From: a virus
Length of the DNA: 30,630 bases
Strand: one strand, 5' to 3'
Virus record (IMG/VR): IMGVR_UViG_3300013127_000020
Coordinates: 1 to 30,630 of that record
Shown here: positions 27,980 through 30,630 of the stretch, in pieces
Layout: every line of letters starts with the position of its first letter
Numbering within the stretch: position 1 is the first letter of the stretch
Translations under genes and position numbers: made by a program
Notes under the pieces: generated by a model
Seen by the model: the letters and a program-made list of their open reading frames with translations, nothing else
Databases searched by the model: none
What the model was told of the DNA's origin: nothing

Positions 27980-30630
27980 ATGGTCCTTACGCCAGAACAA
28001 ATTGCCGCGATTACGCAGATTTTGCGGGACGGGAGTACCGCCGTCGCAATCCGCACGTCAGGGTACCGGGTTACGCAATCCGAATTTGATCGGCTGAAGG
28101 CCGAGGGGTACCTGCCCGAAGACCTGAGTTACGCGGACATGGTGGAGGCCAGCTACCGGCTGGGGCAAGCCATGCAGGCACAGCCCGCGTCTCGCAAGTG
28201 GGACTACAAAGAGCTGGGCGAGTTCCTGCGGAAGGATCCGCGTCCGTTGTCGGTCGCCGAACGGAATGCAGTGGAGGTTGCACAGCAACGTGCAGGCACG
28301 TTCTGCGTGGGCCTGGGCAACACGTACAGCTCGGAACTGGGGCGCGTGCTGGTGGACGCCGATCAGGAGTTGGCCGAGCGCACACGCGCAGGGATTCGCA
28401 CCGAGACAAGTCGGGCGATTGCCGAGCGCGCGACGGTCAAGACGCTGAAGTCACGTCTCGGGCATTTGACTGAAGACTGGGCGCGCGACTGGGATCGAAT
28501 CGCGATCACGGAGACGCACCAAGCGCATCAAGAGGGTGTCGTGTCCGAGATCGTCACCCGCAAAGGGTCTGACGCCGGGATGGCCAAGATCCCGGAACCG
28601 GATGCGTGCCCCGCGTGCAAAGACCTGTTCCTGGAGCAGGGACGCCCCGTGGTGAGGCCCGCGTCCTGGTGGATGGCCAACGGCACCACGAATGCGGGCC
28701 GGAAGCGCGCGGACTGGAAAGCCGTGCTGGGTGCTGTGCACCCGCATTGCCGGTGCCAAGCTGTCGAGGTTCCCGAGGGGTGGGGGTTCGATGCTGCCTG
28801 GAATTTGGTACCCCTGGACGAGCCTGGACAGCCACTGGACAAAAGCCGGACAAAAGCTGGACAGGGCTACCGGGATCAGCTGCCCGGTGGGCGTGCCGAT
28901 AGGATGCTACCCGCGCAGTTCGACTCGGCGGATTTGGGCGAGGGGACCGCGCACGAGTTGGAGCACACGCGAGATCGCAAGCTGGCACGCGAGATCGCGA
29001 TGGATCACTTGGCAGAGGATCCGAAGTACTACAAGAAGCTGCGCAAGCTCGAAAAGGCCGAGCAGATGAAGCTGTTCGGCGATCACAGTGGGGAAGGTTC
29101 GCGCGGCGCGCGCGCGGACATTGCCAAGGCTGGGCAAGGTGGGCCGTTCATTGGGCCTCGTGGCGGCAAGTGGGCCGACCCGCAGCACACGATCCCGTGG
29201 GAGGAACACATGCCCGCAGACGCTGTGCGCGCACACGTGGCCGAGGCTGACACTGGCGGCAAGCACGGAAAACCCGCTACCGTAGGATCTGTGCGCGACG
29301 AGGACCACGTGCGCGTGACTGTGCCGTTGGAACACCTGGACGCGATTGATCCTGCCGACACCGCTAGGGTGAAGGAGTACGCGGAACGCGGCACACCTAT
29401 GCCCGCTATTTCCGCGTCATACAGTTCGCGTTCGCACGCGAAGGGTAAGGGCACGTTGTACGTGCCCAATGGGAATCATCGCGTGGCCGCTGCGCGTGCA
29501 CGCGGTGACACGCACATTGAAGCGGTGGTGCCTAAGTCGGATTGGGAACGGTGGTCTTCCCGCGAAACGAAACCCGCTCCCGAAGAAACGCAACCTGCGT
29601 CTGATCCTTTGGCTGTCGGGACAGTGCACACGTTGCCCCCTGGCATACTCGGGCGCGATCAGGCTGTGCAGTTCAAGGTGCAGGGCACCAAGGACGGCAT
29701 GGTGTCCGTTGCGCAAACGTGGGACGGCAAGGAGGGTATGTCGATTGCGATGCCCGCTACTTCCTTGCGGCATTTTGTGAACGATCTGTCGGGCAAGGTG
29801 GATCTGCCCGCCACGTCGGAGAACACGTTGGTGAACGACGTGATCAACGGCAAGGGTACGTTGTTGGGCAAGGGTGACGACGGCGTGGTGTTCCAGGTTG
29901 GCGACCACGTGGTGAAAATGTCCACGACGGTGCCCTATCAGCCGATGAATCCTGGGCATCGCACCCCCGAAGCTGCTGCTTACATGCTGGAAAAGCAGGT
30001 GACGGTGGGCAACAAGCTGTATGAGGCTGGCGTGCCCGGCATTCAGCAATCGTTGTACGTGCAGCACGGAGACAAGGGGTTCCAGATCAAGCCCTTCGTG
30101 ACGATCCCTGAGAAGCTGACGCGTGCGCAGTTGGACGCTGCGCAAGCGAGTGTGCTGGCCATGCACGAGAAGGGGTACGCTTTGCGTGATTCCGTGCAGG
30201 TGGGTCTGGACGCCGAGGGGAACGCTGTTCTGTTCGACATCGGGAAGGCGGGCCAGTATCAGGCCGACAAAAAAGAGACGATGGGTACTTACGCGGGGAT
30301 GCCCTACGAGGTGGCACACGATCTTGAAGCTCTGGAGCACCTGTACCGCGAGAATGGCGAAACGTTCGTGCATCGTGATGCGACTGCCGGGGAACACAAG
30401 GCCAAGATCGCGTTGAGTATGTCGGATAAATCACCCGCGAATTTCGTGGTGCAGATGAATTTAGATTTTGCGCTGAAGACGCTGACAAAGGAGATCGCAG
30501 CGTTGCCCGAGGGATCGCAGCGTTCCCGGTTGGAGAAGATGCGGCAGCGTGTGGCGGACGAGCACGAGTTCGTTACGGATGCGCTTGCTGCTGCCAAAAA
30601 AGATCGGAAAGTTGCAAAATCTGCAACTTA
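27980..30630 (+). CDS. Mu gpF-like minor-head protein with ParB-like and kinase-like C-terminal extension (partial, 883+ aa)
   Basis: Head domain: helical N-terminus, then ITETHQAHQEG (E178), CPAC (C210, C213) and HPHCRC (H256-C259), the Mu gpF/SPP1 gp7 minor-head signature. After QMKLFGDHSGEGSR (31-base repeat) and a GGPFIGPRGGKWADP tag (387-401) comes a ParB-like stretch with NGNHRVAAARARG (N497-R501). Residues 630-646 give a glycine-rich loop (GKGDDG) and VVKM with K646, like a kinase; YALRDS (D737) and LFDIGK (D753) match the catalytic RD and DFG-like motifs, but the Asn five residues after D737 is Gly. The third palindrome follows and the gene runs off the window. Head morphogenesis role is firm; the extension is inferred. 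Confidence 0.75.
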   Translation, partial: MVLTPEQIAAITQILRDGSTAVAIRTSGYRVTQSEFDRLKAEGYLPEDLSYADMVEASYRLGQAMQAQPASRKWDYKELGEFLRKDPRPLSVAERNAVEVAQQRAGTFCVGLGNTYSSELGRVLVDADQELAERTRAGIRTETSRAIAERATVKTLKSRLGHLTEDWARDWDRIAITETHQAHQEGVVSEIVTRKGSDAGMAKIPEPDACPACKDLFLEQGRPVVRPASWWMANGTTNAGRKRADWKAVLGAVHPHCRCQAVEVPEGWGFDAAWNLVPLDEPGQPLDKSRTKAGQGYRDQLPGGRADRMLPAQFDSADLGEGTAHELEHTRDRKLAREIAMDHLAEDPKYYKKLRKLEKAEQMKLFGDHSGEGSRGARADIAKAGQGGPFIGPRGGKWADPQHTIPWEEHMPADAVRAHVAEADTGGKHGKPATVGSVRDEDHVRVTVPLEHLDAIDPADTARVKEYAERGTPMPAISASYSSRSHAKGKGTLYVPNGNHRVAAARARGDTHIEAVVPKSDWERWSSRETKPAPEETQPASDPLAVGTVHTLPPGILGRDQAVQFKVQGTKDGMVSVAQTWDGKEGMSIAMPATSLRHFVNDLSGKVDLPATSENTLVNDVINGKGTLLGKGDDGVVFQVGDHVVKMSTTVPYQPMNPGHRTPEAAAYMLEKQVTVGNKLYEAGVPGIQQSLYVQHGDKGFQIKPFVTIPEKLTRAQLDAAQASVLAMHEKGYALRDSVQVGLDAEGNAVLFDIGKAGQYQADKKETMGTYAGMPYEVAHDLEALEHLYRENGETFVHRDATAGEHKAKIALSMSDKSPANFVVQMNLDFALKTLTKEIAALPEGSQRSRLEKMRQRVADEHEFVTDALAAAKKDRKVAKSAT
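29073..29103 (+). repeat. 31-base direct repeat, copy 2
   Basis: Identical to 22901-22931. Here it is followed by GCGCGGC, so the encoded GSRGA tag diverges just after the repeat ends, whereas copy 1 continues GSRGGKVIG. Confidence 0.9.
30609..30629 (+). repeat. Palindrome, copy 3 (8-base arms, 5-base loop), at the window end
   Basis: Arms AAGTTGCA and TGCAACTT flank AAATC. Twenty-two bases (30609-30630) match copy 1 exactly. In the minor-head frame it spells V-A-K-S-A-T, with two bases left before the window edge. The following codon begins TA, so a stop or Tyr is possible. Confidence 0.9.

What the first reader, a model, noticed from the sequence alone, without database searches (positions are those of the whole stretch)
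27980..30630. Minor-head protein extended by ParB-like and kinase-like domains
The gpF-like head domain ends around residue 265, but the frame runs on for more than 600 residues with NGNHR (ParB-like), a glycine-rich loop with K646, RD (D737) and DIG (D753). Minor-head proteins that carry ADP-ribosyltransferase tails are known in other phages. A kinase-like tail would be a further payload type entering the host with DNA. The missing Asn after the RD motif makes a pseudokinase or an atypical enzyme equally possible.
Basis: partly seen in the sequence, partly recalled or inferred. Interest (0 to 1): 0.75.

Follow-up and report, generated by a model that had tools for sequence, protein, structure and literature searches.

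The report
Phage head protein carrying a kinase
A minor head protein of an uncultured bacterial virus is fused to an unusual kinase-fold enzyme and other domains, with candidate cutting sites for the virus's own head protease in the linkers, which suggests a set of proteins packed in the head, cut apart and injected into the host.

Summary
The kinase fold is supported by an AlphaFold model whose matches are kinases (IRAK4, Z 11.0, 3.0 A over 181 residues). K646, D737 and D753 are conserved in 13 of 13 relatives; the missing Asn is replaced by an invariant Gln (Q740), favouring an atypical active enzyme. The kind is known: 'polyvalent proteins' (Iyer 2017). This kinase family is not recognised by the Pfam model for polyvalent-protein kinases. 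The more surprising part is a candidate cutting code, [L/M/F]xK|[A/S]: enriched 3-4-fold in these proteins while LxR[AS] is at chance, present at the capsid N-terminus where a homologous capsid in the PDB lacks its first 24 residues, and lying outside folded domains in 30 of 31 cases. I propose that the SPO1-type head protease cuts this polyprotein inside the prohead, freeing kinase and pyrophosphatase for injection. Cleavage, injection and catalysis are inferred, not shown.

The parts
27980..30630 (+). MuF-kinase-InPase gene, 5' part (cut by the contig end; 1,212 aa from ATG in L004, 1,217 from TTG)
27980..28792 (+). MuF (gpF)-like minor-head domain, residues 1-271
   Evidence: PF04233 in 6 of 11 relatives (best 2.5e-4; the window protein itself has none), phrog_115 minor head protein in 8 of 11; gene follows the portal gene
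28835..28846 (+). candidate cleavage site LDK|S just after the MuF domain
   Evidence: cleavage inferred
28943..29056 (+). DUF5661 (PF18905)
   Evidence: E 1.8e-9
29048..29059 (+). candidate cleavage site LEK|A
   Evidence: cleavage inferred
29120..29200 (+). recurring linker IAKAGQGGPFIGPRGGKWADPQHTIPW
   Evidence: 19 copies listed (one, L004, is the same virus); DNA pattern in 51 IMG/VR stretches
29285..29560 (+). ParB/Srx-like stretch with NGNHR (not confirmed)
   Evidence: no Pfam match; one tblastn relative inside a gene annotated portal protein of Tunturiibacter phage Tunturi_5, E 2e-4
29666..29815 (+). N-terminal strand-rich extension that travels with the kinase
   Evidence: alignment A2 and model
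29816..30412 (+). kinase-fold core (model residues 80-278)
29864..29884 (+). glycine loop LGKGDDG
29915..29917 (+). K646, beta-3 lysine
   Evidence: 13 of 13
30188..30190 (+). D737, catalytic-loop Asp
   Evidence: 13 of 13
30197..30199 (+). Q740, invariant Gln taking the place of the catalytic-loop Asn (inferred)
   Evidence: 13 of 13; HMM alignment
30236..30238 (+). D753 of the DIG motif
   Evidence: 13 of 13
30443..30601 (+). two C-terminal helices after the kinase core
   Evidence: model

Best explanation
This is a polyvalent (multi-domain) minor head protein of a tailed phage with an SPO1-type head. The MuF-like domain anchors the chain at the portal during head assembly. DUF5661, the ParB-like part, the kinase and the pyrophosphatase are cargo. 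The phage's head maturation protease cuts the chain at [L/M/F]xK|[A/S] sites in the linkers, leaving MuF in the head and freeing the cargo to enter the host with the DNA. There the atypical kinase (K646, D737, Q740, D753) phosphorylates a host target early in infection and the pyrophosphatase acts on PPi or nucleotides. Shown here: the domain order, the kinase fold prediction, the conservation, the InPase match, the motif statistics and the matching capsid site. Inferred: cleavage, packaging, injection, catalysis and target.
For: Kinase: AF2 model (pLDDT 77.8, pTM 0.66); 267 PDB matches at E<=1e-3, the 50 listed being kinases or kinase-domain proteins; IRAK4 2nru_A Z 11.0, rmsd 3.0 over 181; catalytic positions 13 of 13. 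Fusion real: L004 and the independent L012, one gene MuF-linker-kinase-InPase. InPase E 3.3e-31 and 4.9e-34. Setting: terminase and portal genes, and the 16148-22288 gene with SNF2-type helicase and ddrB-ParB. Processing: L.K[AS] 152 seen against 38.2 (sd 6.6) in 94 ORFs, L.R[AS] 48 against 48.0; repeated in 49 linker proteins of other contigs, 117 against 39.9 (sd 6.5), L.R[AS] 28 against 27.2; in one 113-kb phage contig 20 against 5.1 in head/polyvalent ORFs, 5 against 4.6 in the tail region, 13 against 9.8 elsewhere. Of 31 sites in 11 MuF genes, 30 lie outside the domains (Fisher p 1.4e-10). The capsid N-terminus carries L[RNK]KA in 5 of 5 capsid genes. The PDB capsid 9row_B starts 24 residues after 5lii_P, between K24 and S25, at the position aligned with this K|A. 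Protease and capsid are homologous to those of SPO1.
Against: No experiment on this phage: cleavage, packaging and injection are all untested. The kinase lacks the HRD His and the loop Asn, and the alpha-C Glu is Gln in 12 of 13. Sequence profiles alone barely see a kinase (STK16 E 0.15 and 0.023; no Pfam kinase). The window contig ends before the protease and capsid genes, so those were seen only in relatives. Fold similarity shows no substrate: lanthipeptide-synthetase and WbdD kinase domains are also among the hits. The deposited start of 9row_B is the depositors' choice, not N-terminal sequencing seen here. The ORF sets behind the motif counts contain some wrong-frame ORFs, and homologous loci are not independent.
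Confidence: 0.6

Rival explanations
1. The domain is a pseudokinase: it keeps the fold and perhaps nucleotide binding but serves as a binding or scaffold module.
For: No HRD His, no loop Asn, alpha-C Glu mostly Gln; no profile match to active kinases.
Against: G-loop, Lys, catalytic Asp, a Gln three residues on and the DxG Asp are invariant in 13 of 13, the distant L023 included; pseudokinases usually lose such residues (general knowledge).
Confidence: 0.2
2. It is an active kinase of a small molecule (nucleotide, sugar, antibiotic-like or lipid-like), not of proteins; together with InPase it alters nucleotide or alarmone pools.
For: The kinase fold also covers small-molecule kinases (general knowledge); the partner InPase is a nucleotide/PPi enzyme (PMC5512222 section on InPase).
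Against: The best structural matches are protein kinases, but fold alone does not decide.
Confidence: 0.25
3. The protein acts inside the producing cell or in head assembly and is not injected; LxK[AS] are not cutting sites but lysine-rich linker sequence.
For: No virion data. Linkers are rich in K, A and S.
Against: Shuffles keep each protein's composition and the controls L.R, V.K and A.K stay flat (I.K is raised, flat). The same motif sits in capsid, protease and scaffold and agrees with the start of 9row_B. It is not clearly enriched in tail and other ORFs of the 113-kb contig.
Confidence: 0.15
4. The fusion is an assembly or binning artefact.
For: The window ends inside the gene at a repeated 21-bp palindrome, a likely assembly break.
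Against: A second assembly, L004, reads through, and the independent phage L012 has the same fusion.
Confidence: 0.01

Closest known systems
Polyvalent proteins (Iyer et al. 2017, PMC5512222; abstract, passages and sections 8, 23, 33 read)
   Same: Several unrelated activities in one chain, encoded among virion genes; contains the polyvalent InPase domain (PF18823); neighbouring gene with SNF2 helicase and ddrB-ParB
   Different: They propose release by zincin metallopeptidase domains or a fused assemblin-like peptidase; here a separate SPO1-type head protease with an LxK|[AS] code is proposed
Kinase-PolyVal, PF18762 (same paper)
   Same: Kinase fold in phage polyvalent proteins; [quoted passage not shown]
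   Different: The HMM finds none in the 12 contigs at E<=10; Asp in place of the Glu before strand 2; helices after the DIG motif are retained
MuF polymorphic toxins (Jamet et al. 2017, PMC5576092; passages read)
   Same: MuF domain with a variable C-terminal effector, expected in the phage head; one studied example carries an ADP-ribosyltransferase
   Different: Several domains and no small immunity-like ORF behind the gene: in L004 the next frame is at least 168 aa (cut by the contig end) and overlaps the stop
SPO1 / Herelleviridae head module
   Same: Relatives' head protease about 41% and capsid about 37% identical to SPO1; L/V-x-K|A/S motif in the SPO1 capsid, scaffold, portal and protease
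   Different: I saw no such kinase in isolated phages: tblastn of the kinase against 50,697 phage records found none
Phage SPN3US prohead protease gp245 (PMC10052503, passages read)
   Same: A head protease that cuts ejection proteins after a P3-x-P1 motif with Ser preferred at P1'
   Different: Its motif is AxE; here LxK

Membership tests
Protein-kinase-like fold | two-lobe kinase fold | tested here: met
   predicted model
Protein-kinase-like fold | beta-3 Lys, catalytic Asp, DFG Asp | tested here: met
   13 of 13
Protein-kinase-like fold | HRD His and catalytic-loop Asn | tested here: not met
   His replaced; Asn replaced by invariant Gln740. This lowers the claim of a canonical kinase, not of a kinase fold
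Protein-kinase-like fold | phosphotransfer | not testable with these tools
   needs an assay
Kinase-PolyVal (PF18762) | match to the family HMM | tested here: not met
   0 of 12 contigs at E<=10; no match in 9 members
Kinase-PolyVal (PF18762) | Gln in the last N-lobe strand | tested here: met
   12 of 13
Kinase-PolyVal (PF18762) | loss of the whole C-terminal subdomain | tested here: inconclusive
   reduced C-lobe: model aligns to most listed kinases only up to about residue 278
Kinase-PolyVal (PF18762) | Glu before strand 2; insert between His and Asp | tested here: inconclusive
   Asp (D634) in place of Glu; H729 to D737 spacing as in STK16; the family's own alignment was not at hand
Polyvalent protein | two or more disparate domains in one chain among virion genes | tested here: met
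Polyvalent protein | delivered with the DNA | not testable with these tools
   no virion data
Polyvalent InPase (PF18823) | match above the curated cut-off | tested here: met
   108.4 bits against a cut-off of 26.8, in L004
MuF / gpF minor head protein (PF04233) | HMM match | tested here: inconclusive
   6 of 11 relatives, best 2.5e-4; the window protein itself no match; PHROG minor head in 8 of 11
MuF / gpF minor head protein (PF04233) | gene next to portal | tested here: met
   portal 25618-27324, two small ORFs between
ParB/Srx domain | profile match | tested here: inconclusive
   no Pfam match, no PDB relative; only the GNHR motif and one relative in a gene annotated portal
MuF polymorphic toxin | small immunity-like ORF downstream | tested here: not met
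   L004: next frame 13636-14139 is at least 168 aa

The most novel reading that the evidence does not exclude
[L/M/F]xK|[A/S] is a general cutting code with which phages that have an SPO1-type head protease turn giant polyproteins into separate injected effectors inside the head. The GPRGGKWADPxHTIPW linker that follows it is a dedicated docking, packaging or cassette-joining element, and the kinase is a new family of injected kinases with a shortened D-x-x-Q catalytic loop.
Probability: 0.35. Interest if true: 0.78.

Novelty: new variant of a known kind. Interest (0 to 1): 0.56.

Why it matters
How phages load and release multi-domain effector proteins is an open question; the published proposal is self-cleavage by metallopeptidase domains. 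Here the candidate cutter, its code, its positions between domains and a structural precedent in the capsid can be read from sequence, so a single virion mass-spectrometry run on a relative, or a protease-plus-substrate co-expression, would settle it. If right, the code would also allow effector boundaries to be predicted in many uncultured phages. The kinase would add a family of early host-modifying enzymes with an unusual catalytic loop.

Tried and rejected
Genome collection: the first scan with a 3-row alignment found nothing; the second found one Myxococcales MAG, CP070713.1 (L021). In 377 genomes of its phylum 2 held the family, that MAG and a distant relative, L023. The kinase region has no tblastn match in 50,697 phage records or 72,556 plasmids. 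The 30-aa linker query found nothing in phages.

PF18762 members for a profile-profile test could not be got: 1 of 282 genomes had a match, 21.4 bits, below the cut-off.

The second model (residues 1-590, pLDDT 61) gave no useful PDB match (best Z 5.6); in BFVD two matches at E<=1e-3, one of them named phage head morphogenesis domain protein. The ParB-like part is too poorly predicted to judge.

Considered and dropped: a chimeric contig (L004 and L012 speak against it); a MuF toxin with an immunity gene (no small ORF behind it).

In those listings I saw no report of an LxK cutting code in polyvalent proteins, and of kinases in such proteins only PMC5512222; subscription papers are not held. 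HK97 cutting after Lys103 is recalled only and is not used as evidence.

Full report
Observation. Homologues begin at the residue corresponding to ATG 27980, so I use that numbering. K646, D737 and D753 are as stated. The window is a 30,630-b IMG/VR record. A second contig (L004) is 99.92% identical over the last 12,651 bases and carries the gene on to 1,217 aa from TTG. The window stops at the third copy of a 21-bp palindrome, which probably explains the break.

Architecture. Residues 1-271 are a MuF-like minor-head domain. The window protein itself does not reach Pfam's Mu F model, but 6 of 11 relatives do (best 2.5e-4), and 8 of 11 match the PHROG minor head family. The portal gene lies just upstream, with two small ORFs between. 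Then follow DUF5661 (E 1.8e-9), a linker with GPRGGKWADPQHTIPW, a ParB-like stretch with NGNHR that no profile confirms, the kinase-like module, and in L004 an inorganic pyrophosphatase domain (PF18823, E 3.3e-31). The same MuF-linker-kinase-InPase order in one gene occurs in an independent phage, L012. In L007, L009, L013, L014, L015 and L021 the kinase sits in a gene upstream of the MuF gene. In the distant L023 it follows an InPase-like stretch and precedes what reads like a cytosine methylase; these two labels are by eye from the translation, not from a profile. The kinase therefore looks like a mobile cassette among head-associated proteins.

Kinase. An AlphaFold2 model from nine sequences has mean pLDDT 77.8, with the element order beta1-beta2-beta3-alphaC-beta4-beta5-alphaE-catalytic loop-DxG. 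Foldseek finds 267 PDB matches at E<=1e-3, and the 50 listed are kinases or kinase-domain proteins. VIA-align gives IRAK4 at Z 11.0, rmsd 3.0 over 181 residues, and 944 of 1,000 chains at Z>=8. HMM alignment with the true kinase STK16 (weak, E 0.15 and 0.023) puts D737 on the HRD Asp, D753 on the DLG Asp, and Q740 on the loop Asn with a two-residue shorter loop. In 13 homologues the glycine loop glycines, K646, D737, Q740, G742, D753 and G755 never change; the alpha-C position is Gln in 12 and Glu in L023. I read this as an atypical active enzyme. The Pfam model Kinase-PolyVal finds none of these kinases in 12 contigs at E<=10, so I do not file it there, though it shares the Gln of the last N-lobe strand described for that family (PMC5512222, passages read).

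Processing code. A pattern L-x-K-[A/S] recurs in these proteins. In 94 ORFs (51,600 aa; longest non-overlapping, some surely wrong frames) of the window and 10 related loci it occurs 152 times against 38.2 (sd 6.6) in composition-preserving shuffles. L.R[AS] is 48 against 48.0, L.E[AS] 51 against 44.0, V.K[AS] 34 against 31.7 and A.K[AS] 59 against 54.2; M.K[AS] (33 against 12.5), F.K[AS] (28 against 14.2) and I.K[AS] (35 against 19.6) are also raised. In 49 linker-bearing proteins from contigs not used before (8 of the 51 stretches dropped as known contigs), it is 117 against 39.9 (sd 6.5) while L.R[AS] is 28 against 27.2; L.D[AS] is mildly raised (43 against 27.4). Inside one 113-kb phage contig it is 20 against 5.1 in 10 head and polyvalent ORFs, 5 against 4.6 in 32 ORFs of the tail region, and 13 against 9.8 in 74 others. 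In 11 MuF genes, 30 of 31 [LMF].K[AS] sites lie outside the MuF, kinase and InPase domains, which take up 4,533 of 7,880 aa (p 1.4e-10; domain edges set by motif, and the genes are related, so p is only a guide). A site lies within 10 residues before the InPase in 8 of 10 genes with an InPase start found; the other two have IEKA and LRKG/MEKS near there. Before the GPRGG linker, [LMIF].K[ASG] occurs in 54 of 62 windows of 24 aa against 13.5% of random windows, with K mostly 6 or 7 residues before the linker.

Who cuts. The relatives' head genes include a head maturation protease (phrog_1028, E 1.4e-37 to 4.2e-43 in four loci; Pfam's S78 model only E 0.034 in one of them) and a major head protein, homologous to those of Bacillus phage SPO1 (41% and 37%). 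All five capsid genes read carry L[RNK]KA near the N terminus, as does SPO1 (LNKALEAG). In the PDB the capsid entry 5lii_P has 463 residues and 9row_B 439; the alignments to SPO1 differ by exactly 24 residues, so 9row_B begins right after K24 (...DVVK|SF...), at the position aligned with the LxK|A of these phages. SPO1's four head proteins are likewise enriched ([LMFVI].K[AS] 19 against 3.7; upstream non-head ORFs tested 3 against 2.2). A head protease cutting ejection proteins after a P3-x-P1 motif with Ser at P1' has been shown for SPN3US (AxE; PMC10052503, passages read).

Mechanism. I propose that the MuF domain brings the polyprotein to the portal in the prohead, the head protease cuts the linkers, and MuF stays while kinase, InPase and perhaps the ParB-like part leave with the DNA. 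Shown: anatomy, fold prediction, conservation, motif statistics, homologous capsid site. Inferred: cleavage, packaging, injection, substrate.

Known or new. The class is known (polyvalent proteins, PMC5512222), and MuF proteins with effector tails are known (PMC5576092). New here, as far as my ten searches show: this kinase family with a D-x-x-Q loop, its fusion between MuF and InPase, and the LxK|[AS] code tying such proteins to an SPO1-type head protease. I rate it a new variant of a known kind.

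Noticed in passing
window 16148-22288 (+): 2,046-aa polyvalent protein with SNF2/strawberry-notch-type helicase and ddrB-ParB (PF18763, E 4.9e-23), between terminase and portal.
   Followed up: partly
window 22279-25611 (+): 1,110-aa protein with no Pfam or PHROG match, beginning MGMNKATQYGLFGG and rich in LxK[AS].
   Followed up: no
window 1673-1693, 16599-16619, 30609-30629: 21-bp palindrome AAGTTGCAAAATCTGCAACTT: three places, up to 3 mismatches (0 expected); two lie inside large head-associated genes, one of these at the contig end, where it codes VAKS.
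   Followed up: partly
51 IMG/VR stretches, L037-L087: Linker GPRGGKWADPxHTIPW between domains or near the N terminus of giant proteins; function unknown.
   Followed up: partly
window 29048-29080 and L005, L006, L007 ORFs: A second short motif, KA-x-Q-x-x-LFG (KAEQMKLFG, KAEQLGLFG, KATQYGLFG), right after LxK; not counted.
   Followed up: no
L013 2998-7386: Giant protein with GGDEF, DarA_C and a second, different kinase-like glycine loop (GSGGEGMVF) besides the kinase family described.
   Followed up: no
L021, CP070713.1 Myxococcales MAG: Copy of kinase and MuF-InPase genes near an acyl-CoA-dehydrogenase-like gene (identified by eye); a hint that hosts may be Myxococcota, although the head genes are nearest those of Firmicutes phages.
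   Followed up: partly
PP885688.1 161980-162147: ParB-like stretch related to the window's lies inside a gene annotated as portal protein of jumbo phage Tunturi_5.
   Followed up: partly
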